From contig CAKZSI010000069.1 of assembly GCA_937918935.1 (NCBI GenBank), positions 1 through 64,000 on the forward strand: a stretch of DNA of 64,000 nucleotides, given 5' to 3'. The translations under genes were made by a program, and so were the position numbers. The first letter of the stretch is position 1; each line of letters begins with the position of its first letter. Source of the stretch: an uncultured Chloroflexales bacterium (GTDB lineage Bacteria; Chloroflexota; Chloroflexia; Chloroflexales; Chloroflexaceae). Positions 16,019 to 29,154 of the stretch are shown piece after piece. The notes beneath the pieces were generated by a model, which did not search any database, was not told the DNA's origin, and worked only from the letters and a program-made list of their open reading frames with translations.

Positions 16019-16513
16019 TCAGTCACGACCGATGCCCGCCTCGGTCAGGAGGCGCACCACCCGCTCGAGGCGATTGAGGGCCCGGGCTAGCAACAGGGCC
16101 GCATCGGCGATAATCGCTTCGCTAAGAGCCGGATTGGTGTTGACCTTGTCGCGCACAGGCCGCAGCACCTGCTCCATCGTATCGAGAAAGTCGCTTGCCT
16201 GATACAGGGCGGTTTCGGCATCCTCGCGCTGTTTGGAAGCCACCATCGGCCAGCGGCCATGGATCGGTTTGGCGCGGGCCATCGAGAGAAAGCGCGCCAC
16301 CCGATCGGCCCGCGTCAACGCATCTGAGACGTAGCGTTCGGTGTCGGTAACCAGGACGAGGGTGAGACTTTGATTGCCATGAACCCTGGCCCGGGCTGAG
16401 TCGAGCGTGGTCTGGGCCCGTTGCAGGATCTGTACCGCCTCATCAGCAGCCTGGATCGCCGCTTCCCGTTCGCTCTCCGCTTCGATTGGCCATCGTCGAG
16501 GAATCGTCGGCAT
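16019..16513 (-). CDS. Unknown helical protein
   Basis: About 164 residues, almost entirely helical by composition (EAAIQAADEAVQILQRA and DAALLLARALNRLERVV), with no cysteine pair or recognisable catalytic motif. I do not recognise the family. The start at ATG 16513 is preceded by GGAGG three bases away, and it overlaps the end of the upstream membrane-protein gene by 71 bases, suggesting translational coupling. The two genes probably form one unit. Confidence 0.55.
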   Translation of the reverse strand: MPTIPRRWPIEAESEREAAIQAADEAVQILQRAQTTLDSARARVHGNQSLTLVLVTDTERYVSDALTRADRVARFLSMARAKPIHGRWPMVASKQREDAETALYQASDFLDTMEQVLRPVRDKVNTNPALSEAIIADAALLLARALNRLERVVRLLTEAGIGRD

Positions 16514-16895
16514 AAGCCTCCACAGGCGCCTGTTCCCGGGTTGCGGCATAGCGCAGGAGTTCAATCTGCCGCACCATCGCCTCACCGATCTGCCAGAGGA
16601 TGATCGGCGTGCCCGAGGCGATAAAGCCACGCCAGACCGCCGCCTCATACTGGCGCCAGTCCATATCGGGCTGCCGGCGGGCGGCGATAGCCACAGGAAC
16701 CAGCGTAATCAGGACCCCACCGGCCACTTCGGCCCAGGTGTGGTCGGGCTTGATGGGAAGGCGGCGCTCGAGATAGCTGAGCGCCACCGCATAGGCGGTC
16801 GAGAGTCCCAACGTCAGCAGGGGCGTGCCGAGCATCGGATCGCCTGAGGTCTGCTTGGCCTGGGACACGTCACGCTTCAGTTGAAACCGGGTCAT
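16443..16895 (-). CDS. Unknown small membrane protein
   Basis: A 150-residue protein with two probable membrane segments (about residues 21-40 and 55-75), separated by YLERRLPIKPDHTW, and a soluble tail. AAAGGAA precedes the ATG at 16895. I do not recognise the family; the layout recalls small holin-like or membrane-adaptor proteins, but nothing confirms that. It is divergent from the MraZ operon, so the 398-base gap to the right must carry promoters in both directions. Confidence 0.6.
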   Translation of the reverse strand: MTRFQLKRDVSQAKQTSGDPMLGTPLLTLGLSTAYAVALSYLERRLPIKPDHTWAEVAGGVLITLVPVAIAARRQPDMDWRQYEAAVWRGFIASGTPIILWQIGEAMVRQIELLRYAATREQAPVEAYADDSSTMANRSGERTGSGDPGC

Positions 16896-17173: not shown

Positions 17174-17202
17174 TTAACAAAGTTCTTATGATATGCTATA
17201 GT
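17174..17202 (+). promoter_or_regulatory. Promoter of the MraZ-NACHT-CHAT-gasdermin operon
   Basis: A -35 box TTAACA (17174-17179) and -10 box TATAGT (17197-17202) are separated by 17 bases, in an AT-rich island that stands out from the surrounding GC-rich DNA. The predicted start point is near 17209, inside the phased CCC array, so a bound repressor would block initiation. The rest of the gap (16896-17173) holds no gene that I can support. Confidence 0.7.
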
Positions 17203-17205
17203 ATA

Positions 17206-17275
17206 CCCCAGTTAATACCCAATAATTACCCTTAAATATCCCTGATTAAGCTCGAAAATTGCCCTGTTCGAGCCC
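17206..17275 (+). promoter_or_regulatory. Helically phased CCC array, probable MraZ operator
   Basis: CCC triplets begin at 17207, 17218, 17229, 17240, 17262 and 17273, all in one 11-bp register; the slot at 17251 is degenerate (CTC). The first four sit in AT-rich context such as TACCCA and TACCCT. On the other strand each is a GGG half-site. Known MraZ operators are direct TGGG-type repeats at roughly one helical turn just upstream of mraZ. Position, spacing and the adjacent mraZ gene suggest autoregulation; binding itself is inferred. Confidence 0.65.
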
Positions 17276-17293
17276 GCTGGCGGAGGCAAACGT

Positions 17294-17734
17294 ATGTTCA
17301 TCGGCACCTTTGAGACCCCGGTCGAACCATCCGGCCGGATCGTGATCCCACCCGCGTTTCGCGCTGCCGCCCTGGAGGGCCTCACCGTGACCCGCGGCTT
17401 CGACCGCTGCGCGCAGGCGTTTCCCACCCCCATCTGGCATGACCTTGCCCGGCGCATTAACGCGCTGCCGCTCTTTGTTGACGCCGCACGGCAGGCCCGG
17501 AGCCTGCTCTTTGCCGCTGCCACCGAACTGACCCCCGATGCCACCGGCGCAGTGCTGCTGCCCCGCCCGCTCCTGGCCCACGCCGGGATCGCCTCGACCG
17601 TCGTTCTGGTGGGGATGGGCGCCTTCTTCGAACTCTGGTCACCCGAGGCATGGAACGCCGCCAGCGATCATTTGCTGCACTCGGTGAGCCGGTGGACTGG
17701 CGCCGATCTGCCGCTGGCTCTGGCGGCCATCTAG
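17294..17734 (+). CDS. mraZ: MraZ-like transcriptional regulator
   Basis: A 146-residue protein of MraZ length and layout. It begins MFIGTFETPVEPSGRIVIP, matching the family start, and the second half ends in LVGMGAFFELWSPEAW, the typical MraZ second-repeat ending. MraZ is a ring-forming AbrB-fold DNA-binding protein that represses the division and cell-wall (dcw) cluster. The first DNA-contact motif keeps its arginine (PSGR). The second (DATGA, residues 82-86) has alanine where arginine is expected, so one half may bind weakly. GGAGG precedes the ATG. It is followed not by rsmH but by immune-like genes. Confidence 0.85.
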   Translation: MFIGTFETPVEPSGRIVIPPAFRAAALEGLTVTRGFDRCAQAFPTPIWHDLARRINALPLFVDAARQARSLLFAAATELTPDATGAVLLPRPLLAHAGIASTVVLVGMGAFFELWSPEAWNAASDHLLHSVSRWTGADLPLALAAI

Positions 17735-17837
17735 TAGGGTCGAGGTATTGGCTGCACCAATGCTTCGGCCCGACCGTCTGCGAGCAGGGGCACTGGCTAC
17801 CAGCAAACAGCGATCACCGCCCACGTAAGGAGGCCCT

Positions 17838-18056
17838 ATGCCATTGATCTTCCACACCCCTCCCGATGCCGCACCGCGCACCTCTGGCAGCGCCGCCCTG
17901 GCCCGCGTTCGCCTGCGCCAGGCCCTCACCCGCGACCGCGGCGCCATCCCGGCCCCTTCCGCCGCCGAGGTGCTCGCCCGACTCCTCGACGAGCCGCTTC
18001 CGTCAGGCGTCGAGCAAACGCTACCTGTTGCGCCTGCCCGCGGGGGACGCCAATGA
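17838..18056 (+). CDS. Small 72-residue protein of the MraZ-NACHT operon
   Basis: A short frame starting at ATG 17838 behind a near-perfect ribosome site (AAGGAGG). It ends in the ATGA overlap with the NACHT gene, so translation of the two is coupled. The product is Ala/Arg/Pro-rich (ALARVRLRQALTRDRGA, then AAEVLARLLDEPLP) without a membrane segment or known domain. The strong ribosome site and 4-base overlap argue that it is a real gene. It could be an adaptor, inhibitor or leader peptide; I cannot tell which. Confidence 0.6.
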   Translation: MPLIFHTPPDAAPRTSGSAALARVRLRQALTRDRGAIPAPSAAEVLARLLDEPLPSGVEQTLPVAPARGGRQ

Positions 18057-21000
18057 GTGACCTGGCTGCCTCTCTGGGCACGTCCATCGTGGCCGTGGCG
18101 GCGGCGCTCGCCGACGCTGCTGCCGCCGACCCCGAGGCCACGCTGCTTACCGCCCGGCTCAGCGGTCTCACCGCGCTCGGCGAGGGACCGCCCGCCGCGG
18201 CGCTGGGCCGCGCCATCGCCCAGGCCGAGGCGCGCCTGCGCGACGAGCACCCCGCCGCCGCCGGGCCGCTCATTGCGCTGCTGCGCGATCCCCATCCCGC
18301 CGCGGCACGCTTTCGTGCCGCCGCCGTGGAGGAGTTGCTGCTCGCGGGCGAGCCGGATCTGGCGCGTCTTGTTGAGGTGTACCGCCGCGAGGTGCGCACC
18401 GCTCTCGCCGCCGCCGGGAACGAGGCGCCACCCTGGCGCCTCATCGGCCCGCCGTTGATCCGTCTGCTCGGCGATCTGCTGCCCGCGGCGTGCGCCGGGC
18501 AGGCCCGGCTGCGCCGCTGCCTGCCCGACGAGGCCGAGCGCGCCCTGATCGACCGCCTGCGCGCCGCCCGCCTCGCGGCGTTTCCTGCCGAACCGTCTGG
18601 CCAGAGTATCGTCGCGACTTCCGGCGCCTCCATCGCCCAGGTGCGGCAGACCATCGTCCACGGCGATCTCTACACCCTGCCCGGTTCACCCGCACCTGAT
18701 CTACCCCTGCTCTACGCCCACTACCGCGCCTTCGTCGCCGAGACGTTCGGTTCGCTGGATTTTCGCGGGATGATGCAGGTGCAGGCGGCCACACGCATCC
18801 CCCTCGAGCGGATCTACGTTCCGCTTATGGGTCGCGCGCCACAGGATGAGCACATCCCCGACGCGCCTCGCGCCTCCCTTCACGAGTTCGTGCGCGCCCA
18901 GCCGCTTCTGGTGGTGCTCGGCGACCCCGGCAGCGGCAAGAGCACCCTGGTGCGCTACCTGCTGTTGACCCTCACCCGCGGCGACGCGCGCCGCGACCTT
19001 GGCCTCGACCCGCTCTGGCTGCCGATCTTCTTTCCTGTGGCCTCCTTCGCCGCCGCCCGCTCCCGGCCCGGCGCGGGCGATCTGTCTCCCCTGGAGTATC
19101 TCAGCGCCTACTACGGCGGCCTCTCCCAGCCCGACTACGGTCCGCTGTTCGCGCGCGCCCTCACCATGGGCCGCGCCCTGGTGCTCTTCGATGGTCTCGA
19201 CGAGGTGCGCGACGACCGCCAGGCGATCGTGCGCGCCCTCGAGGCGTTCGTGCGCGAGTGGGACGCCCCCGGCAATCGCTTTGTGGCCACCTCACGCATC
19301 GTCGGCTACCCGGAGGCGCCTCTCGACCCCGACCTGTTCGCCGTAGTGACCATCCAGCCCCTCTCTGACGACCTGATCCGCGCCTTTATCGAACGCTGGA
19401 GCCGGGTCTACGCCGCGATGGGCACGCCGTCGCTCGCCACCGACGGCGATCTGCTCCACGACCTGATGCGCGAGGCCGCCAGCGCCGAACTGGAGCGTCG
19501 CGTTGCCGCCCACAGTGCTGCACTCACCACAGCGGTGTTTTCGACGCCCCGGGTCACCGACCTGGCGCGCAATCCGCTCTTGCTGACCATCCTGGCGCTG
19601 ATCCACAACCAGGGCACTCGGCTGCCCGATCGCCGGGCTGATCTCTACCGTCTCTGCGTTGAGGCCCTGGCCGAGACCTGGAACCGCACCCGTTCGTTGA
19701 GCGGACGACCCATCGCCGTTCAACTCGGCGATGAGCAGATCGACGAGCGTTTCGTAGTCAATGTGCTCGGCCCGGTGGCCCTCTGGCTCCACGGCGAGCG
19801 CGCTGGCGGTCTGATTGAGCAAGACGAACTGGAGCGCCACATCGCCGTCACCCTCGCCCAGAGCGACGGTCTGCCCCGCCGGCGCGCCCGGCGTCTGGCC
19901 CGCGAGTTCATCGAGTTGATGCGCCGCGATACCGGGCTGCTCATCGAGCGCGGCTACCGCCGCTTCGCCTTCGTGCATCTGACCTTCGAGGAGTACCTGG
20001 CCGCCCGCGGGCTGCTGGAGTCGGTGGTGGTCGAGCGCCCCGATGACCTGCTGCAACGCTACGCCCTCGACCCGCGCTGGCACGAGGTGCTGCGTCTAGC
20101 TATCGCCTCGGCCTCGCAACGCGAGGCGCAGCGCCTGCTGCTCACGTTGCTGGCAACACCAGCCGGAGATGAGCAGCGCGGTCTACCCGCGGTGCTGGCC
20201 GGCGAATGTCTCCTCGATGCCGGGCGCAATGCCGCCGGCGGGCGCGCCTGGGAAGCCGGCCTGGGGGCGCTGCTGGCCGTCGTGGCCGATCCCGCTGCGC
20301 CGCTCAACATCCGCGTCGCCGCTGGCGAGGTGCTCGGACGTCTCGGTGATCCGCGGCTGCTCGACCCGGCCACGGGTCGCGCCGTGGGCGCCAGTGGAGC
20401 GGCGATCCCCGATTACTGGTGCGACGTGCCCGCGGGCACGTTCTGGCATGGCGACGAGCGCCAGCGGCGCGGGCGCCGCGCCGCCCTGAAACCGGTCGAA
20501 CTGCCCTACGCCTTTCGCATCGCCCGCTACCCGGTGACCAATGCCGAGTTTGCCCGCTTCATCGCCGCCGGTGGCTACAGCGACCCGCGCTGGTGGAGCG
20601 TGACGGGGTGGGCCTTCCTGGGACCAGACGGCCATCGCGCCCCGCCCGAGGAGCGTGGCGCGCCCATCGCGCAGCCCGGACTCTGGACGGTCGCCAGCTA
20701 CAACGGCCCCACGCAGCCGGTGGTCGGCGTCTCGTGGTACGAAGCGGCGGCCTTCTGCACCTGGCTGACGGCCGAGGGCCGCGCCGCCGGCTGGCTCTAC
20801 CCCGGCGAGATGTTGCGCCTGCCGACGGCGCTCGAATGGGAACGGGCCGCGCGCCACCTCGACCAGCGCCGGTACCCCTGGGGCGACGATCCGCCCGACA
20901 CGGGCCACGCCAACTTCGCCGCGTGCGCCCTGCGCGCTCCCTCACCCATTGGCTGCTTTCCCGCCGGCGCCGCGGTCTGCGGGGCGCTCGATCTGGCCGG

Positions 21001-21220
21001 CAATGTCTGGGAGTGGACCTGCAGCCTGGCCGACGCCCTGGAGGAGCGCGGGCCGCGCACCGATGTGGCGCTCCACGAAACCCCGGCGATCAAAGGCGGG
21101 GCCTTTAACTGGGAGGCCGAGGGGCTGCGCTGTGGCGCTTACAACCGTTTCCCACCCACCCAGCGCTACAACTTGCTGGGCTTTCGTCTGGTGTGGGTTG
21201 CCGCCGAGGAGGGTGTATGA
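18053..21220 (+). CDS. NACHT-family STAND NTPase with C-terminal FGE-like domain
   Basis: A 1055-residue NLR-like protein. Residues 1-280 are helical with a linker (SGASIAQVRQTIVHGDLY) of the type found before NACHT domains. The NTPase has Walker A GDPGSGKST (about 290-298) and Walker B LVLFDGLDEV (about 377-386), followed by helical and HEAT-like sensor segments (about 650-780). Residues 790-1050 form a formylglycine-generating-enzyme/C-type-lectin-like domain: FRIARYPVTNAEFARF, VVGVSWYEAAAFCTWL, LRLPTALEWERAAR, LDLAGNVWEWTCS and a final LGFRLVW. Such NTPases act as ligand-triggered assembly switches; the FGE fold may recognise the ligand. ATGA overlaps join it to both neighbours. Confidence 0.92.
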   Translation: MSDLAASLGTSIVAVAAALADAAAADPEATLLTARLSGLTALGEGPPAAALGRAIAQAEARLRDEHPAAAGPLIALLRDPHPAAARFRAAAVEELLLAGEPDLARLVEVYRREVRTALAAAGNEAPPWRLIGPPLIRLLGDLLPAACAGQARLRRCLPDEAERALIDRLRAARLAAFPAEPSGQSIVATSGASIAQVRQTIVHGDLYTLPGSPAPDLPLLYAHYRAFVAETFGSLDFRGMMQVQAATRIPLERIYVPLMGRAPQDEHIPDAPRASLHEFVRAQPLLVVLGDPGSGKSTLVRYLLLTLTRGDARRDLGLDPLWLPIFFPVASFAAARSRPGAGDLSPLEYLSAYYGGLSQPDYGPLFARALTMGRALVLFDGLDEVRDDRQAIVRALEAFVREWDAPGNRFVATSRIVGYPEAPLDPDLFAVVTIQPLSDDLIRAFIERWSRVYAAMGTPSLATDGDLLHDLMREAASAELERRVAAHSAALTTAVFSTPRVTDLARNPLLLTILALIHNQGTRLPDRRADLYRLCVEALAETWNRTRSLSGRPIAVQLGDEQIDERFVVNVLGPVALWLHGERAGGLIEQDELERHIAVTLAQSDGLPRRRARRLAREFIELMRRDTGLLIERGYRRFAFVHLTFEEYLAARGLLESVVVERPDDLLQRYALDPRWHEVLRLAIASASQREAQRLLLTLLATPAGDEQRGLPAVLAGECLLDAGRNAAGGRAWEAGLGALLAVVADPAAPLNIRVAAGEVLGRLGDPRLLDPATGRAVGASGAAIPDYWCDVPAGTFWHGDERQRRGRRAALKPVELPYAFRIARYPVTNAEFARFIAAGGYSDPRWWSVTGWAFLGPDGHRAPPEERGAPIAQPGLWTVASYNGPTQPVVGVSWYEAAAFCTWLTAEGRAAGWLYPGEMLRLPTALEWERAARHLDQRRYPWGDDPPDTGHANFAACALRAPSPIGCFPAGAAVCGALDLAGNVWEWTCSLADALEERGPRTDVALHETPAIKGGAFNWEAEGLRCGAYNRFPPTQRYNLLGFRLVWVAAEEGV

Positions 21221-22584
21221 AGCCATCCCCTGTCCGCGCCGATCCACGGCTGATCTTCTTACCGCGCCGCGACGGCGTCACCCTGCGCTGGGAAGCCGAC
21301 GTACTCGGCGCCCGCGCCAGCCGTATGGCGCCGCCCTTCCTGCGTGACGACCTGGCCCTGGTGCTACGGGCCCTCGACGCCCTGCAGGACCCGGCCTACC
21401 CCATCGCCTGGAACGACGATCAGGAGCAACGCTTCGCCTTCGGCGCAACCGAGCGCGCCCGGCTGGCCGCCCTGGAGCTCTGGGATGCGGCGGAGCGCGT
21501 ATCCGCCGATGCGCCCCGGCGCGTGGGCCGCCGGCTCTTTCACGCCCTGACCGCCGACCCCGCCGGCGCCCGCGCCCTGGCCACGCTGCGCGATCACGCC
21601 ACGGCCCTTGGCCACCCCCTGCGCCTGGAGTTGTGCTTCCCGCCCGAAGCGACCGACCTGGCCGCCCTGCCCTGGGAACTTCTCTGGGACGAGGGGCCGC
21701 TGCCCCTGGTGCTGGCCCACGACGGCGCCGGCAGCATCGCGCGGCGGCTGGACCTGCCGCAGGCCCTGCCGCCGCGCCGCCAGGCCAGCGGCCCGTTGCG
21801 CATTCTGGCTATCTCGCCCCGGGCCGGCATCAGCCCCGAGTTGCGCCAGGTCGAACGCGCCGCCCGTCTCGATACCTGGCAGCCGCTGATCGACGCCGGG
21901 CGCGCCAGGGTGATTGAAGTAGAGCCGGCCAGCCGGGTCATGGTGGTGCAGGCCCTCGGCGCCGGCCCACCACCCGATGTCGTGCATTTCTACGGCCACG
22001 GACGCTACCTCAACGGCGAGGGGGCGCTGCTCCTCGATGACGGCTCCGGCACAGCCTGGACGCCCGCCACCACCCTGGCGGCCCTCTTCGGCGGGGTCGC
22101 GCTGGTGGTGCTGCACGCCTGCCAGGGGGCCATGCTCGGCGTGAGCGCGCCCCTCGTTGCCGGGGTGGCCCAGGCCCTCTGCGCCAACGGCGTACCTGCC
22201 GTGCTGGGGATGCAACTCAGCGTGCGCGCCAGCGCCGCCGGGCGCGTCGGCGCCGTGCTCTACCAGGCCCTCGCCGCCGGGCGCAGCCTGCAAGACGCCG
22301 TTGCCCTTGCCCGACGCGCCCTGTTCGTCGAGGAAGGCGATCGTGTCTCCTGGTTCGTTCCGGCCCTCTACCTGCGGGACCGCGACGGGGGGCCGTTTTA
22401 CCTCCGCCCGCCCGCCACCGATCCCACCGGAGAGGCGGCGCCACCCGCCGCCCGGCAGATGGTGCTGGCCCACGGCGGGCAGATCCGCACCCTGCGCATC
22501 CAGGGCCGCGCCGGCTCGGCCCAGCGCGTCGTCGCCCTCGACGGAGGCCACATCAGCGGCGTGTCAATGGAGGATCGATCGTAA
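21217..22584 (+). CDS. CHAT-domain caspase-like protease
   Basis: A 455-residue protein whose C-terminal half is a CHAT peptidase (caspase clan). The catalytic His lies in HFYGHG (His261) and the Cys in LHACQGA (Cys302); both are present, so it is predicted active. The N-terminal domain contains LAALPWELLWDEG, the usual entry motif of CHAT proteins. It starts at ATG 21217, overlapping the NACHT stop by four bases, which implies a stoichiometric pair. CHAT proteases coupled to NLR-like NTPases cleave partner proteins on activation; the likeliest substrate here is the gasdermin-like protein at the operon end. That pairing is inferred. Confidence 0.92.
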   Translation: MKPSPVRADPRLIFLPRRDGVTLRWEADVLGARASRMAPPFLRDDLALVLRALDALQDPAYPIAWNDDQEQRFAFGATERARLAALELWDAAERVSADAPRRVGRRLFHALTADPAGARALATLRDHATALGHPLRLELCFPPEATDLAALPWELLWDEGPLPLVLAHDGAGSIARRLDLPQALPPRRQASGPLRILAISPRAGISPELRQVERAARLDTWQPLIDAGRARVIEVEPASRVMVVQALGAGPPPDVVHFYGHGRYLNGEGALLLDDGSGTAWTPATTLAALFGGVALVVLHACQGAMLGVSAPLVAGVAQALCANGVPAVLGMQLSVRASAAGRVGAVLYQALAAGRSLQDAVALARRALFVEEGDRVSWFVPALYLRDRDGGPFYLRPPATDPTGEAAPPAARQMVLAHGGQIRTLRIQGRAGSAQRVVALDGGHISGVSMEDRS

Positions 22585-22590
22585 CACGCC

Positions 22591-22633
22591 AGGGGAGGGT
22601 TTGGGGCAACCAGGTTGCCCCAAACCTTCCCCT
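22591..22633 (+). repeat. Strong hairpin inside the operon, repeat-family copy
   Basis: Arms of 20 bases (22591-22610 and 22614-22633) pair with a single G-T wobble around a 3-nt loop. It lies in the 193-base gap between the CHAT and amidase genes. No T-run follows, so it is more likely a message-stabilising or attenuating structure than a full terminator. The sequence belongs to the window's dispersed palindromic repeat family. Confidence 0.7.
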
Positions 22634-22777
22634 CGGCAAGATAGAGAAACCCGTTTGCCCCACATGCCCCTCCCGCCGGAGGGTCCGGGAGGGCGCAGCC
22701 CTTCCAGGAAAGAACCTCTCGTTGCGCGGCGAAGCCGCATGCGCCCTTGACGACCGCATACCGGAGGAACAAAACCA

Positions 22778-24631
22778 ATGCATATCGAATGGCTCGGCAT
22801 GACCCGCCAGCACTACCAGCCTGGCGCCCTCACCCGGGTGCGTATGGTGGTGATCCACGCCACTGCCGGGCGCGCCCCCGGCGACCTCAACTGGCTACGC
22901 CAGGGCGGCGATGAACACCGTCCCGTCTCGGTTCACTACTACATTGGTCGCGATGGGCGGGTTGTGCAACTGGTCAAAGAGGAAGACATTGCCTGGCATG
23001 CCGGCACGAGCGTCTGGGCTGTTGATGGGCGCGTTATGCAGCATTGCAACCGCTTCTCGATTGGTATTGAGCTGGAAAACCTTAACACCGGGCGCGATCC
23101 CTACCCCGAAGCCCAGTATGCCGCCGCGCTGGAGCTAACGCGGGATCTGGTGCGCCGCCACAACGTGCCGCGTGGCCAGCTCGTCCGCCACCTGGACATC
23201 GCGCCAGGGCGCAAGACCGATCCCGCCGGTTTCCCCTGGGAACGTTTCGTCAGCGAGGTCTACGCTGGCACATCCGAGGCCAACGACGACCCGCAGGCCC
23301 AACTGCGCGCCCTGATGCGTGACCTTGCCTACCGGGCCGCCGGTTCGGCGCTACCCGCCGTATGGCCCCTGTACGAAGCCGCCCGCGCCGCACATCTCGG
23401 CATGCCCATCGCCAGTCGCAGCGGGCGTCCCCAGGCTGCCAGCCCCGCGACGGCCCAGGACGACCGCGACCGCGCAGTGCGTCTCCCCGGCCAGGCACCG
23501 CTGATCATCGAGGTGTACGCCCGCGACCTGCTCTACGCGCCCCTGACCAGCGACGAGCGCCCCCGGGCCAGCGCCATCCGCCGCTTGAACGAGACGCCTC
23601 CCGGCCCGCTGCGCGAGGCCCTGGTTGGAGAAATGTTCCGCGCTGCCGATCCGGTCAATGGCTTCCGGCCCGACTGGGCCTTCCACCAACGCTGGCAACT
23701 GCGCGCCAGCGACCTGGGGGCGCCCATCGGTCCCAACCATCGCATTGTGGTGGGGGGGAAGCCCTTTGCCTGCCAGCACTTCGCTCTGGACAGCCTCTGC
23801 TCACCGGTGGGCGCCTGGCGCACGATCTACCACCTGAGCGAACTGAGCAGCGGGGGGAGCGGCGCCCCTCAGCCCGCGGCGCTGCGCGTCGCCCTGCTCG
23901 ACGACCTCTACCGTGCCCGCGCCGGGCGACGCTACGACCCGACGGCGCTCCTTATACGGCAGGCCGAGACCCGGCGCCTGGGCGCACCTCTGGCGCCGCC
24001 CGAAGTGGCGATGGTCGCGGGCCGTCCGTACCTGCTGATGGCCTTTGCCCTCGATGTCCTGGCCTGCCCATTGCCGCGCCTCACCTGGCCCCTCGACCAG
24101 CCATTGCCCGCCGAGACGCCGGCAATCGCCCTCGACGACGCCCCGGCGCTCCTGGGCGCGCCCGTCCCACAGTGGACGGAGCGTCTGCTGGGCGCCGCCG
24201 CGGCGCCCGCGCTGCACGACCTGCTCCTTGACGCACCCCGGGGCCATGACCGCCCGGCGCCCGACACCCTGCTCATCAGCACGGCGCCCGGCCCTGCCGC
24301 CACCGATCTGCGCCTGGAAGCCGGAAACGCCCGCTGGCACTACTACGTCACGACCTCCGGCGCGATCTACCGTCTCGGTGACGAACGTGCCAGCGCTGGC
24401 GCCCCGGCGCCAACCAGACGCGCCGTATGCATCGCGGTCGAAGGGGGCGCCACTGCCGCCGGCCCGACCCAGCGCGCCGCCCTCGCCTGGCTGGTACGCA
24501 CCCTGGCGAACGCCTGGCACATTGCTCCGCAGCAGATTATCGCCACTGACAGGGCATCGTCAGGCTCGGGCGTGCGCCGGACCAATACAGAACGACATCC
24601 TGTTGAGATTGGAGGAGCAAACGATGTCTGA
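22778..24631 (+). CDS. PGRP/Amidase_2 protein with a second, degenerate amidase domain
   Basis: A 617-residue protein. Residues 20-165 form an N-acetylmuramoyl-L-alanine amidase of the PGRP/AmpD type, with zinc ligands His27 (VVIHATAG), His138 (RHLDIAPG) and Asp148 (RKTDP), plus EDIAWHAG; it should cut or bind peptidoglycan stem peptides. Three copies of an unnamed repeat follow (about 205-253, 312-343, 400-430; LGxP, then FALDxL and CP or AP). Residues 495-607 resemble a second amidase domain (HYYVTTSGAIYRLGDE) but lack the first His (LLISTAPG) and the last ligands, so it can only bind. No signal peptide is seen. GGAGG precedes ATG 22778. It overlaps ftsZ by 8 bases. Confidence 0.85.
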   Translation: MHIEWLGMTRQHYQPGALTRVRMVVIHATAGRAPGDLNWLRQGGDEHRPVSVHYYIGRDGRVVQLVKEEDIAWHAGTSVWAVDGRVMQHCNRFSIGIELENLNTGRDPYPEAQYAAALELTRDLVRRHNVPRGQLVRHLDIAPGRKTDPAGFPWERFVSEVYAGTSEANDDPQAQLRALMRDLAYRAAGSALPAVWPLYEAARAAHLGMPIASRSGRPQAASPATAQDDRDRAVRLPGQAPLIIEVYARDLLYAPLTSDERPRASAIRRLNETPPGPLREALVGEMFRAADPVNGFRPDWAFHQRWQLRASDLGAPIGPNHRIVVGGKPFACQHFALDSLCSPVGAWRTIYHLSELSSGGSGAPQPAALRVALLDDLYRARAGRRYDPTALLIRQAETRRLGAPLAPPEVAMVAGRPYLLMAFALDVLACPLPRLTWPLDQPLPAETPAIALDDAPALLGAPVPQWTERLLGAAAAPALHDLLLDAPRGHDRPAPDTLLISTAPGPAATDLRLEAGNARWHYYVTTSGAIYRLGDERASAGAPAPTRRAVCIAVEGGATAAGPTQRAALAWLVRTLANAWHIAPQQIIATDRASSGSGVRRTNTERHPVEIGGANDV

Positions 24632-25751
24632 TCAGCCAACGACCCGTGTCAGCGCCGACCTGCGGGAGGTTGCCGACAACGTGATCGTCTTTTCCCGACC
24701 AGAAGACGTCGCCGCGCGCCCTTCGCTTTTTCTGGCCCAGCTTCCGCTCGACTCCGCTCCGGTGAAGATCCGGGTCGTCGGCGTGGGCGGAGCGGGCGGC
24801 AACGTCATTGACCGGCTGGCCGGCGAACGCATCCCCAGCGTGGACACCCTGGTCGTCAACACCGACCGGCAGGCCCTCGGCGCCAGTCGGGCCACCCGCC
24901 ACCTGGTACTGGGCGAGACGGTGACCCGCGGCCTTGGTGCAGGGGGAGACCCGCTGGTGGGCCGCCAGGCCGCCGAGGAGAGCGCGGCCTCGCTGCGCGA
25001 GCGTCTACGGGGCGCCGACATGGTCTTTATCGCCGCGGGCATGGGGGGAGGAACAGGAACCGGCGCAGCGCCGATCGTCGCGCGCGTGGCCCGCGAACTG
25101 GGCGCCCTCTGTGTTGCCCTGGTCACCCGGCCCTTCAGCTTCGAGGGGCGGCGACGCGCGCAGATCGCTACCCAGGGCATCGTCACCCTGCGCGAAGTCG
25201 CCGATACGCTGATCATCGTGCCGAACGATCGACTGATCCAGGCTGCTACGCGCAGCACCTCCATCCGTGAGGCGTTCGACATGGCCGATACCGTGCTACG
25301 GCTCGGTGTGCAGGGCATCGCCGAACTGATGGTACAGCGCGGCCTGATCAACGTTGACTTCGCCGATGTGCGCGCCGTGATGGAACGGGCCGGCATGGCC
25401 CTGCTGGGCATTGGCGCGGCACGGGGCCACAACCGCGTCGTTGAGGCCCTGCGCCGCGCCACCGCCTGCCCGCTGCTGGAGGGCCGCCTCGAAGGCGCGC
25501 GCCGGCTGTTGCTCAACATCACCGGCGGCAACGACCTGGGTCTCCTGGAGGTGCACACCGCCGCCGAACTGGTGGCCCGCACCATTGACCCCGACGCCAA
25601 CATCATCTTCGGGGCCACGATTGACCCGACCCTGACCTCCGGCCTGGTCAAGGTCACCCTGGTCGCCACCGGCTTTGCCGACGTCGAGGCGCCGGAGACC
25701 CTCCCACGGGCCGGGGCGCGGGGAAACCCGCTTTCCCCGGGTTCGCGTTAG
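24624..25751 (+). CDS. ftsZ: FtsZ GTPase embedded in the NACHT-CHAT operon
   Basis: A 375-residue tubulin-fold GTPase. The signature GGGTGTG is at 141-147, and the T7 loop keeps the catalytic set N243, D245 and D248 (NVDFADV). FtsZ motifs such as RPFSFEGRRR and VDPDANIIFG-like DPDANIIFG are close to consensus, so polymerisation and GTP hydrolysis are expected. It has a 46-residue N-terminal extension, and the tail after residue 350 is only about 25 residues, without the conserved C-terminal peptide that binds FtsA-type anchors. ATG 24624 follows GGAGGAG and overlaps the amidase stop by 8 bases. No other dcw genes surround it. It could be the cell's main FtsZ or a paralogue dedicated to this system. 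Confidence 0.93.
   Translation: MSDQPTTRVSADLREVADNVIVFSRPEDVAARPSLFLAQLPLDSAPVKIRVVGVGGAGGNVIDRLAGERIPSVDTLVVNTDRQALGASRATRHLVLGETVTRGLGAGGDPLVGRQAAEESAASLRERLRGADMVFIAAGMGGGTGTGAAPIVARVARELGALCVALVTRPFSFEGRRRAQIATQGIVTLREVADTLIIVPNDRLIQAATRSTSIREAFDMADTVLRLGVQGIAELMVQRGLINVDFADVRAVMERAGMALLGIGAARGHNRVVEALRRATACPLLEGRLEGARRLLLNITGGNDLGLLEVHTAAELVARTIDPDANIIFGATIDPTLTSGLVKVTLVATGFADVEAPETLPRAGARGNPLSPGSR
25719..25739 (+). repeat. Palindromic repeat encoding part of the FtsZ tail
   Basis: CGGGGAAA and TTTCCCCG form an 8-bp stem around CCCGC. It is a copy of the window's intergenic repeat, but here it lies inside the coding sequence and supplies about residues 366-372 (RGNPLSP). A second copy occupies about 25816-25841, in the gap before the next gene. 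Confidence 0.6.
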
Positions 25752-25909
25752 GTACGGGCGAAAGATGTTTCGCCCATGCCTGATACCGATCTACTCTCCG
25801 CATCGCGCAGGGGCCTGGGGAAACCCGGGCGCCCCACCCCCCTACGGCAGCCCCCCCGTGGGCCCGGCCGGCCCGGAGCTATTTCACATCGGATGACAAG
25901 GAGCAAACT

Positions 25910-26773
25910 ATGAGCCTGATCCGTCTCTGCCGCGAGGACCCGCTGGTGAGCCTGGTGTACGAACTCTTTGGCGCCAACATCGTGCGCGTGCCCGATGCCC
26001 GGGTGCGCCCGCTGACCGTGGTGGTGCACCGCGACGGGCGCAGCTTCTTCCGCGGCGCCCTGCTGCCCCTCCTCACCGACAGCCGGCCCCTGGGCGTCCC
26101 ACCCGAGGAGACCGAACTCACCGACATCTCGGGGCGTCGCTCGCGCCGCGTGGCCCTCGATCTAGGCCTGCACATCCTGCGGGGCTTCCTCAAGGGCTTC
26201 GGCGTGCCTGCCGCCGAACTGACCGCCGGGATCGAGGGGGCGGCCCATATCCAGTTCGCCTTTCCCGATGTGCGTCGCCTGGCCCTCGATGTCAACGCCC
26301 TGGGCTGGGCCATAGCCGGGCGCTGCATCGACCGGGCCAACCCCGCCGCCGCCATCCTCTTTGAACACCCGCGCTACGATCTGCTGCTGATCGACTCGGT
26401 GCTGATCAGTCGCTACATCACGATAGTGCTCACCGGCGCGCGGGGGCAACGCCTCAACGTTGACGTCTCGGCGCTCCAGCACCTCCTGGCCGAACTTGGG
26501 GGCCACGTGAACGCCTCCAACGCCGGCGAGATCGAGATGACCCTTGAAAGCCCCCACGCCCTCACCTTCGCCTTCTCCTGCGTGCGTCTGTTCTTTACCG
26601 ACGAGGGGCTTATCAGCATCATGCCACCCGATCACAGCCGGCGCACCCTCGGCCCCGCCGACCTGGCCAGCCCCCTGGTTGCCCGCCCCTCACCTGATCG
26701 CATCCAGCTCAGCCCTGGCCCGGGTCTGGTGCTATGGGATCGCTGGCCGTCGGAACAGCCGGTCGCAACCTGA
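25910..26773 (+). CDS. Bacterial gasdermin-like pore-forming protein
   Basis: A 287-residue protein resembling bacterial gasdermins in length and pattern. The N-terminus, with Cys7 next to DPLV (LCREDPLV) and then IVRVPDARVRPLTVV, matches the family's opening, where an N-terminal Cys is lipidated. LTDISGRRS, LDLGLHILRGFL, HIQFAFPDV, LLIDSVLISRYITIVLTG, LAELGGHVN and LTFAFSCVRLFF follow in the family's order. Gasdermins are held inactive by a short C-terminal segment; proteolysis releases a membrane-pore-forming domain. The last 45 residues here (from about Asp241, with Arg244-Arg245) could be that segment. The co-encoded CHAT protease is the candidate activator. AGGAG precedes the ATG. The family call rests on remembered pattern, not a search. 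Confidence 0.75.
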   Translation: MSLIRLCREDPLVSLVYELFGANIVRVPDARVRPLTVVVHRDGRSFFRGALLPLLTDSRPLGVPPEETELTDISGRRSRRVALDLGLHILRGFLKGFGVPAAELTAGIEGAAHIQFAFPDVRRLALDVNALGWAIAGRCIDRANPAAAILFEHPRYDLLLIDSVLISRYITIVLTGARGQRLNVDVSALQHLLAELGGHVNASNAGEIEMTLESPHALTFAFSCVRLFFTDEGLISIMPPDHSRRTLGPADLASPLVARPSPDRIQLSPGPGLVLWDRWPSEQPVAT

Positions 26774-28263: not shown

Positions 28264-29154
28264 TCATTCTTCCCCAAGCAACGCCCGCACGGGCTGGAAA
28301 TGCAGCTTCGCGTAGCGGGCCAACCCTTCGGGGCCCTCGCGGGCGATGATCCAGCGCGCCGCCCGCTCCAGCAGCGGGCGATCCGCGGCGCCGGCCGGCA
28401 ACGGCCCCTCCCACCCCGCCAGAGCGCCCAGGCGGGCCAGTTCCTCCTGAAAGCGCGCCGTCGCCAACACCGAGGCCGCCGCCACCGCCAGGCTGCGGCC
28501 CTCGGCGTGGTGGGCCTGGCGCGGGCGCGGCAAAGCCGCCACGGCAAAGGCCGCCTCCAGGCGCGCGGCGCCCTGCGCGAATTGGTCACAGATGATCGCG
28601 CTCACCCCCGTCTGCGCCACCACCGGCGCGGCAGTGGCGGCGTAGAGTTCCGCCAGCAGCACATTGACATTGCCAGCCGCAGCGTACCGCTCATTGTACG
28701 CCAGCGGCTCGAGTACTGTGACGGCACGCGCCGCGGCGGGGATGAGGTATCCAATCGTTGCAGCCAGATCGGCCATGCGGCCGCTGGCGACGGTCTTGCT
28801 ATCGCGCACCCCTGCCCGGACCAGGGCCGGGGCCACTGCCGGATCGACGCACACCGCTGCCACCACCAGCGGCCCGAACCAGTCGCCCTTGCCCGACTCA
28901 TCCAGGCCGATCTCCGCATGCTCAACCACGAAGCCCGCCGTCACGAGCGCCAGTTCTTCCAGCGCGCGCCGCAGCGGCGTATTGCGCCCGCCCACGACGG
29001 TACGCCCCTGTTTAGGATAGTAGTTCAGGGTGGCCTGATCGCGACCATCCTCGACCAGCACCTGCGTGCCGTAGGGGATGGGCTTCCCGAGGCGCCAGCG
29101 CCATCCCCTGGCTTCGATCGCCTCTTGCAGCGCGGCGAGGCGCGGATCTTCCAT
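28264..29154 (-). CDS. rnhC: Ribonuclease HIII
   Basis: Endonuclease that removes RNA from RNA-DNA hybrids, 296 residues. The N-terminal substrate-binding TBP-like domain includes YPKQGRTVVGGRNTPL. The catalytic domain begins with IGLDESGKGDWFGPLVVAA, the DESGKGD motif that separates RNase HIII from HII; VRDSKTV and LAVAAASVLATARF follow. ATG 29154 is behind GGGGAAAGGT. A TTG at 29172 is also in frame but lacks a ribosome site. The desulfurase gene starts 131 bases downstream. Confidence 0.9.
   Translation of the reverse strand: MEDPRLAALQEAIEARGWRWRLGKPIPYGTQVLVEDGRDQATLNYYPKQGRTVVGGRNTPLRRALEELALVTAGFVVEHAEIGLDESGKGDWFGPLVVAAVCVDPAVAPALVRAGVRDSKTVASGRMADLAATIGYLIPAAARAVTVLEPLAYNERYAAAGNVNVLLAELYAATAAPVVAQTGVSAIICDQFAQGAARLEAAFAVAALPRPRQAHHAEGRSLAVAAASVLATARFQEELARLGALAGWEGPLPAGAADRPLLERAARWIIAREGPEGLARYAKLHFQPVRALLGEE

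What the first reader, a model, noticed from the sequence alone, without database searches (positions are those of the whole stretch)
17174..26773. A seven-gene operon uniting MraZ, NLR-like NTPase, CHAT protease, PGRP amidase, FtsZ and a gasdermin
Seven co-directional genes share one promoter; most are joined by 4-8 base overlaps. NACHT NTPase, caspase-like protease and gasdermin are the known parts of a cell-death module. The same transcript adds a peptidoglycan-recognition protein and two division-cluster proteins (MraZ as the regulator, a GTPase-competent FtsZ). I know of no described system with this set. Hypothesis: the NTPase and amidase sense wall damage, muropeptides or phage lysis products; CHAT is released, cleaves the gasdermin, and the cell dies. 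FtsZ may be a guarded target, a decoy for phage inhibitors of division, or a means of directing lysis to the septum.
Basis: partly seen in the sequence, partly recalled or inferred. Interest (0 to 1): 0.95.

Follow-up and report, generated by a model that had tools for sequence, protein, structure and literature searches.

The report
Gasdermin death operon with division genes
A family of filament-forming photosynthetic bacteria carries a conserved, probable cell-suicide operon that joins a membrane-pore protein and a cell-wall-cutting enzyme to spare copies of two cell-division genes, which suggests that self-destruction is tied to cell division.

Summary
The operon is real. It encodes MraZ, a 72-aa protein, NACHT-FGE, CHAT protease, Amidase_2, FtsZ and a bacterial gasdermin. 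Only 3 of its 6 junctions overlap. MraZ and FtsZ are paralogues; other copies lie on another contig, with ftsA.

In Chloroflexaceae, 24 of 41 genomes have an intact gasdermin and one a relic. In 22 of the 24, CHAT, amidase and gasdermin follow in order; FtsZ2 lies between the last two in 20 of 23 judgeable loci. Gene trees follow housekeeping FtsZ, selection is purifying, and flanks (pheT, an aminotransferase) are shared by several genera, though not shown in others. That points to vertical inheritance.

CHAT and amidase active-site residues are conserved. A small protein is found in 20 of 20 loci holding its region. The promoter carries an 11-bp-periodic MraZ-box-like array.

Best reading: a MraZ2-regulated programmed-lysis module in which NACHT-FGE triggers CHAT, CHAT cleaves the gasdermin, the pore lets a cytosolic amidase reach the wall, and FtsZ2 couples this to division. 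Nothing is bench-tested.

MraZ2, the small protein, the operator and the FtsZ2 changes were not found in print in my searches.

The parts
17174..17202 (+). sigma-70-like promoter, TTAACA-17-TATAGT with TG; the TGCTATAGT core is found in 18 loci (window included)
17205..17242 (+). MraZ-box-like operator: four CCC spaced 11 bp
   Evidence: 12 ACCC pairs at 10-11 bp in 18 loci against a shuffle mean of 0.18, max 3
17294..17734 (+). mraZ2, paralogue of the mraZ on contig C28
   Evidence: PF02381; second copy; family copy numbers
17838..18056 (+). small conserved ORF (72 aa), possible adaptor or inhibitor; homologue in 20 of 20 loci that hold the region
18053..21220 (+). NACHT-FGE STAND NTPase with an N-terminal helical domain; Walker motifs intact
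21217..22584 (+). CHAT caspase-like protease (ATG start; His/Cys pair in 24 of 24 aligned)
22588..22637 (+). hairpin of 23 pairs in the CHAT-amidase gap
22778..24631 (+). AmpD/AmiD-like zinc amidase with middle LGxP-type repeats (seen by eye) and a degenerate second amidase domain; no membrane segment by hydropathy
24624..25751 (+). ftsZ2, paralogue; GTP-binding and T7 motifs intact, C-terminal peptide lost in this species
25910..26773 (+). bacterial gasdermin; Cys7 invariant in 12 of 12 aligned; Arg245 near the pore-domain/tail boundary in 22 of 23
16019..16648 (-). possible associated gene c4: adjoins the operon in 20 of 20 loci that hold the region, no Pfam hit
16443..16895 (-). possible associated gene c9: overlaps c4, adjoins the operon in 20 of 20 loci

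Best explanation
A resident, mainly vertically inherited programmed-lysis operon. Shown by sequence: the genes are one linked unit in Chloroflexaceae; CHAT and amidase active-site residues, the GTP-binding loop of FtsZ2 and the gasdermin family signature are conserved under purifying selection; MraZ and FtsZ are dedicated paralogues; the promoter carries a periodic MraZ-box-like array. Inferred: MraZ2 represses the operon. On an unknown cue the NACHT-FGE protein (in Chloroflexus another part, perhaps FtsZ2 or the small protein) activates CHAT. CHAT cleaves the gasdermin near the conserved PPDxxxR-L segment and frees its pore domain. The gasdermin pore works as a holin and lets the cytosolic zinc amidase reach and cut peptidoglycan as an endolysin would. 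FtsZ2, which usually keeps a division-protein-binding type of tail, ties arming or placement to the division machinery.
For: Linkage and order: CHAT (cut by the contig edge in L051-L053), amidase and gasdermin in order in 22 of 24 intact gasdermin loci; the other two, L044 and L050, end at contig edges. FtsZ2 between amidase and gasdermin in 20 of 23 judgeable loci. Gene trees follow housekeeping FtsZ (Mantel r 0.69-0.88, 0 of 2000 permutations each). pheT beyond the neighbour c4 in 11 of 17 judgeable loci, an aminotransferase downstream in 11 loci. dN/dS 0.02-0.27. CHAT His/Cys 24 of 24 aligned. Amidase H27, Y54, E98, H138, K146, D148 invariant in 15 of 15 aligned (of 30 found), no membrane segment by hydropathy. 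AmpD, AmpDh2 and AmiD are the best structural and profile matches of its first domain. Gasdermin boundary Arg in 22 of 23 (8sl0 chain of 237 aa). Operator array. FtsZ2 and MraZ2 were found only in genomes with other operon genes.
Against: No experiment. Two lineages (g2, g15) keep NACHT-CHAT-amidase with no gasdermin found, so the gasdermin is not indispensable to the unit. FtsZ2 is missing in both Viridilinea and one g11 locus. The FtsZ2 tail is lost in the window and three congeners. pheT is not found near the operon in 6 of 17 judgeable loci (two Chloroflexus, Viridilinea, O. fontis, g2, g15), so the site is not shared by all. O. fontis lacks MraZ2 yet keeps the box array, and 8 of 18 promoters lack an exact ACCC pair. 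The hairpin could uncouple the distal genes in this genus. Lack of a signal peptide rests on hydropathy and aligned N-termini only.
Confidence: 0.53

Rival explanations
1. Anti-phage abortive-infection system proper: the NACHT-FGE senses a phage product, and FtsZ2 is a decoy or guard against phage division inhibitors. Same machinery, but the trigger and selection are phages.
For: CHAT and gasdermin have PADLOC models, and NACHT and gasdermin proteins are described as anti-phage in PMC9612521 (passages). Two operon-less Oscillochloris genomes carry 10 and 15 NACHT-FGE matches, as in sensor families that diversify. pheT is not near the operon in 6 of 17 judgeable loci, so relocation or rearrangement has happened.
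Against: Tree congruence and purifying selection. Among five proteins from each flank, PADLOC matched only an aminotransferase (SspA/DndA models) and an ABC-transporter ATPase. Gasdermin not found in plasmid, phage or viral-contig collections at the sensitivity used. Chloroflexus keeps the effectors without the sensor.
Confidence: 0.32
2. The amidase is a sensor, not an effector: an AmpD/PGRP-like protein that binds or trims recycled muropeptides and feeds CHAT, as PGRPs do upstream of animal immunity.
For: Amidase and CHAT stay together where no gasdermin is found (g2, g15). PGRPs appear among the fold matches. A degenerate second amidase domain could bind ligand.
Against: Zinc ligands and catalytic residues are invariant in 15 of 15 aligned, which a pure receptor would not need.
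Confidence: 0.2
3. Non-lethal role: controlled secretion or cell separation at filament septa, with the gasdermin as a local conduit and FtsZ2 as its scaffold.
For: FtsZ2 tail kept in 16 of 20; tree congruence; the family is filamentous (recalled).
Against: The two bacterial gasdermin pores studied are 130-330 angstrom wide (PMC9612521 section 5), hard to survive; CHAT-NACHT control suggests a one-way switch.
Confidence: 0.06
4. Chance juxtaposition or assembly artefact.
For: The window is a contig of an 85-contig assembly.
Against: The same order in independent assemblies of six genera, including three single-contig genomes.
Confidence: 0.01

Closest known systems
bGSDM operon of Oscillochloris trichoides in the review 'What bacterial cell death teaches us about life' (PMC9612521), Fig 2 (legend read; figure not held)
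   Same: The legend, for four operons together, lists caspase/CHAT, C-type lectin/FGE, NACHT, amidase and tubulin (FtsZ); Oscillochloris is a genus in which this operon was found here. The holin-endolysin analogy is theirs.
   Different: MraZ, the small ORF, the operator, FtsZ paralogy, the family-wide survey, the Chloroflexus form without NACHT and FtsZ2 decay are not in the section and passages read.
Lysobacter-type and Runella-type bGSDM defence operons (named in PMC9612521; details recalled)
   Same: Protease-activated gasdermin with NLR-like or caspase-like partners.
   Different: No FtsZ or MraZ (recalled); here the genes follow the species tree within one family.
STAND NTPase plus FGE/C-type-lectin conflict systems (PMC10907252, passages read)
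   Same: STAND NTPase with a C-terminal FGE domain; CHAT effectors; multicellular bacteria.
   Different: Gasdermin and amidase output; no diversity-generating retroelement was searched for here.
Phage holin-endolysin lysis
   Same: Inner-membrane hole plus a leaderless wall hydrolase of the amidase class.
   Different: The hole is a protease-gated gasdermin, encoded by the host.
dcw cluster (mraZ...ftsZ)
   Same: MraZ and FtsZ families; MraZ-box-type promoter.
   Different: Separate locus; paralogues; no other dcw genes in the operon. Another mraZ and an ftsA-ftsZ pair lie about 19 kb apart on contig C28.

Membership tests
Bacterial gasdermin (bGSDM) | Profile match above curated cut-off and match to solved bGSDM structures | tested here: met
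Bacterial gasdermin (bGSDM) | N-terminal cysteine for palmitoylation | tested here: met
   Cys7 invariant in 12 of 12 aligned; the modification itself is not testable
Bacterial gasdermin (bGSDM) | Short inhibitory C-terminal tail removed by the operon protease | tested here: inconclusive
   conserved tail and boundary motif; cleavage not testable
CHAT protease | His-Gly and Cys catalytic pair | tested here: met
   24 of 24 aligned: 23, the last (an alignment gap there)
NACHT STAND NTPase | Walker A and B | tested here: met
   Walker A in 12 of 12 (a 13th is truncated), Walker B in 13 of 13
Zinc amidase (Amidase_2, AmpD/AmiD type) | Zn ligands and catalytic residues | tested here: met
   15 of 15 aligned; profile; roles of the residues recalled from AmpD and T7 lysozyme
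Canonical FtsZ | T4 GGGTGTG and T7 NxDxxD | tested here: met
   window intact; T4 in 22 of 22; T7 changed to QLDFSH in 8 of 8 Chloroflexus
Canonical FtsZ | Linker and C-terminal conserved peptide | tested here: not met
   absent in the window and 3 congeners, present in 16 of 20
MraZ dcw repressor | Tandem MraZ domain and MraZ-box array | tested here: met
   PF02381 with two stretches; periodic array; but below the NCBIfam equivalog cut-off, 81.1 against 98.35; binding not testable
dcw cluster | Linked rsmH, ftsI, mur genes | tested here: not met
   none among the operon genes; another mraZ and ftsA-ftsZ on C28, genes between them not annotated
Anti-phage defence system | Protection from phage | not testable with these tools
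   none
Anti-phage defence system | Mobile, patchy occurrence in defence islands | tested here: inconclusive
   trees congruent, no clear defence neighbours, but pheT flank shared in only 11 of 17 judgeable loci

The most novel reading that the evidence does not exclude
A division-gated death programme for multicellular filaments: FtsZ2, co-assembling with or reading out the division ring, licenses a gasdermin-amidase lysis unit so that chosen cells die and the filament breaks. In Chloroflexus the operon lacks the NLR-like sensor and FtsZ2 has lost its hydrolysis loop (QLDFSH) while staying under purifying selection, as if it had become a GTP-locked switch in the sensor's place. No gasdermin with a developmental role in bacteria appeared in the papers I saw.
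Probability: 0.14. Interest if true: 0.92.

Novelty: new variant of a known kind. Interest (0 to 1): 0.65.

Why it matters
It is a gasdermin system that follows the species tree across a bacterial family and carries its own division-gene paralogues. It gives a tractable case for two open questions: what bacterial gasdermins do besides phage defence, and whether the endolysin-like genes beside gasdermins act as true endolysins. A small protein found in every locus that holds its region is an obvious adaptor or inhibitor candidate. The CHAT-gasdermin boundary, the FtsZ2 loop change and the operator make direct bench predictions.

Tried and rejected
Rejected: (1) the operon is the dcw cluster (another mraZ and ftsA-ftsZ lie on C28). 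(2) Fast-moving defence island as the simplest reading, though relocation is not excluded. (3) c4/c9 upstream as one frameshifted gene: they look like two overlapping conserved ORFs. (4) LGFP family for the amidase middle repeats: a recalled lead, no Pfam hit at E up to 1. (5) A holin-like replacement of the gasdermin in g15: the 85-87 aa ORF between CHAT and amidase stays below 1.6 on the Kyte-Doolittle scale over 19 residues and has no Pfam hit, so not claimed. (6) Loss of MraZ2 explains decay of the boxes in Chloroploca: contradicted by O. fontis, which lacks MraZ2 and keeps the boxes. (7) One site beside pheT in all genera: I first believed this; a check against each locus showed 11 of 17 judgeable, so the claim was cut back and the odds moved slightly toward defence.

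Led nowhere: the fold of the NACHT N-terminal helices has no PDB match with E at or below 0.001. Direct repeats in the promoter by the repeat finder: none. Paper searches: MraZ + gasdermin gave 32 papers, of which the 10 listed look unrelated by title; Chloroflexus + gasdermin gave one review on acylation in tumours; Chloroflexus aurantiacus + FtsZ + filament + cell division gave 7, none on this by title.
Full report
WHAT IS THERE. Order on the + strand: MraZ 17294-17734; 72-aa ORF 17838-18056; NACHT-FGE 18053-21220; CHAT 21217-22584 (ATG start); amidase 22778-24631; FtsZ 24624-25751; gasdermin 25910-26773. Overlaps are 4, 4 and 8 bp; gaps are 103, 193 and 158 bp. Gasdermin identity is firm: NCBIfam 184.9 bits (cut-off 100), PADLOC bGSDM 9.8e-72, PDB 8sl0/7n51, although Pfam gave no hit. 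One sigma-70-like promoter precedes the set, at 17174-17202.

PARALOGUES. The genome has a second ftsZ beside an ftsA gene (PF14450, 8.4e-36) on contig C28, with a full linker and DLDIPPFL tail, and a second mraZ about 19 kb upstream of it. The window copies are therefore paralogues. In a tree of 98 FtsZ proteins the 22 operon FtsZ2 form one clade (support 0.968); FtsZ2 plus the Chloroflexales housekeeping FtsZ are split from the other FtsZ sampled (0.988), while the split between the two groups is weaker (0.722). Two or three ftsZ genes are common in the phylum, so duplication as such is not unusual. Linkage to a gasdermin is the odd part.

DISTRIBUTION. bGSDM was found in 25 of 150 relatives, all in the window's family, the window's own genome included; one of the 25 (G009) is a fragment. 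In 400 genomes of the phylum it was found in 19, 18 of them in this family. The family has 41 genomes held. The amidase is in 30 of 41 at E <= 1e-20; G013 matches only in part, and in g14 it stands without the other operon genes in the stretches fetched. Two FtsZ_C matches were found in 21 of 41; FtsZ2 was also seen in G040 and G025. MraZ2 was found in 20 of 41 by my reading. FtsZ2 and MraZ2 were seen only in genomes with other operon genes. Named loci put the operon in Chloroflexus, Oscillochloris, Chloroploca, Viridilinea and unnamed Chloroflexaceae. G031 is probably C. aurantiacus J-10-fl by its genome length (recalled).

CONSERVED ORDER. Of 24 loci with an intact gasdermin (window included), 22 show CHAT, amidase and gasdermin in order; in three of these (L051-L053) CHAT is cut by the contig edge. 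The other two (L044, L050) end at contig edges. FtsZ2 lies between amidase and gasdermin in 20 of the 23 that can be judged; it is missing in both Viridilinea and in one g11 locus. FtsZ2 and gasdermin overlap by exactly 4 bp in 9 loci (10 if the longest ORF start is taken in L047). All eight Chloroflexus loci lack NACHT-FGE; of four Chloroflexus genomes searched, two have only matches of 32-35% identity elsewhere and two have none at 1e-30. Genera g2 and g15 keep NACHT-CHAT-amidase with MraZ at the far end and no gasdermin found. In G009 two gasdermin pieces in different frames remain beside pheT, with the same penicillin-binding-protein gene beyond it as in the window: a likely loss at the home site.

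SMALL ORF. A profile built from 15 copies matches just upstream of NACHT or CHAT in 20 of 20 loci that hold that region. Fifteen match by construction. Of the five others, L045 is strong and four are weak (6.6e-10 to 4.7e-5, for an ORF set restricted to these loci; their start codons were not checked).

INHERITANCE. Trees of CHAT, amidase, gasdermin, FtsZ2 and NACHT track housekeeping FtsZ (Mantel r 0.74, 0.80, 0.88, 0.69, 0.83 on 23, 26, 22, 21 and 13 genomes; 0 of 2000 permutations each; shared splits 11/20, 15/23, 11/19, 10/18, 8/10). This does not exclude exchange within the family. Surroundings: the ORFs c4 and c9 adjoin the operon in 20 of 20 loci that hold the region (divergent in all but L140), so they may belong to it. 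Beyond them pheT follows in 11 of 17 judgeable loci (g1, Chloroflexus, Chloroploca) and not in 6 (two Chloroflexus, Viridilinea, O. fontis, g2, g15); three more end at contig edges. A class-V aminotransferase lies downstream in 11 loci (g1, Chloroflexus, g11). The site is thus shared by several genera but not by all. dN/dS in up to eight species pairs is 0.02-0.27 for operon genes and 0.01-0.07 for housekeeping FtsZ. No gasdermin hit in plasmids, phages or viral contigs at the sensitivity used. Of five proteins from each flank, PADLOC matched only the aminotransferase (SspA/DndA models) and an ABC-transporter ATPase.

ACTIVE SITES. CHAT His/Cys in 24 of 24 aligned. Amidase H27, Y54, E98, H138, K146, D148 in 15 of 15 aligned; roles recalled from AmpD and T7 lysozyme. 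The amidase model (mean pLDDT 76.9) matches AmpD, AmpDh2 and AmiD, then endolysins and PGRPs; a degenerate second amidase domain is seen by profile. No membrane segment was found in the amidase or gasdermin by hydropathy. The gasdermin has Cys7 in 12 of 12 aligned and a PPDxxxR segment near where the 237-residue chain 8sl0 ends, with Arg245 in 22 of 23 (the copy of G032 fell out of this set): my candidate CHAT site, an inference.

FTSZ2. GTP loop GGGTGTG in 22 of 22. T7 loop NVDF(A/G)D in 14, but QLDFSH in all 8 Chloroflexus, the same genus whose operon lacks NACHT-FGE. The PPFL-type tail is kept in 16 of 20 and lost in the window and three congeners. dN/dS of FtsZ2 is 0.06-0.21, so it is not decaying.

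REGULATION. A TGCTATAGT core, a pattern I chose after seeing the sequences, occurs upstream in 18 loci, not in g2 or g15. In the 70 bases after it, ACCC pairs at 10-11 bp number 12 against a shuffle mean of 0.18 (max 3), in 10 of 18 regions. The other mraZ promoter of this genome has a GTGGG array with 9-12-bp spacing. So the operon probably has its own MraZ operator. Against: O. fontis has the array but no MraZ2, and 8 of 18 regions lack an exact pair.

MECHANISM. The best reading is programmed lysis with the gasdermin as hole and the amidase as wall cutter. That analogy is already proposed in PMC9612521 (section 5 read in full); the two bGSDM pores it describes, 130-190 and 240-330 angstrom, should pass a 617-residue enzyme. 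What is added here is that the amidase is catalytically intact and apparently leaderless in the 15 sequences aligned, and that the unit carries division paralogues and follows the species tree. The trigger is unknown.

PRIOR ART. The Fig 2 legend of PMC9612521 names Oscillochloris trichoides (spelled 'trichodetes') among four bGSDM operons and lists caspase/CHAT, CTL/FGE, NACHT, amidase and tubulin (FtsZ). The figure is not held, so assigning amidase and FtsZ to that operon is my inference from the Oscillochloris loci here. Searches for further description: (listings). PMC10907252 and PMC13236601 were read in passages only.

VERDICT. A real, conserved system; a new variant of a known kind. Its death-module reading is likely, its division link striking and unexplained.

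Noticed in passing
window 16019-16648 and 16443-16895, - strand: Two overlapping conserved ORFs, c4 and c9, without Pfam hits (c4 tested directly, c9 through its relative in L047), adjoining the operon in 20 of 20 loci. c4 occurs in 27 of 41 family genomes, two of them (G019, G021) without any operon gene found.
   Followed up: partly
G030:C46 and G033:C112: Two Oscillochloris genomes without the operon have 10 and 15 NACHT-FGE matches, some clustered.
   Followed up: no
L139 2259-2516, L140 10402-10665: g15 has an 85-87 aa ORF with hydrophobic stretches between CHAT and amidase, in loci without a gasdermin.
   Followed up: partly
upstream of mraZ2 in Chloroflexus loci L032-L039: A palindrome TACTACA-N-TGTAGTA (variable in places) lies upstream of the operon promoter; it resembles BlaI/MecI-type operators (recalled) and may serve the divergent gene.
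   Followed up: no
L143 1497-3368 (G013): A relative of the amidase, with similar LGxP-type repeats by eye, sits beside a histidine kinase-like gene (by eye) and away from the other operon genes.
   Followed up: no
L144 6838-10545 (G442): The one gasdermin outside the family in the phylum sample is next to a 940-aa CHAT protein with a periplasmic-binding-protein-like domain.
   Followed up: partly
L145 (G014:C215): G014 has a second NACHT-CHAT-amidase stretch on another contig, cut at both ends.
   Followed up: no
window 28330-28428, - strand: ARAGORN calls a tRNA-Arg inside the RNase HII gene; Rfam does not support it.
   Followed up: no
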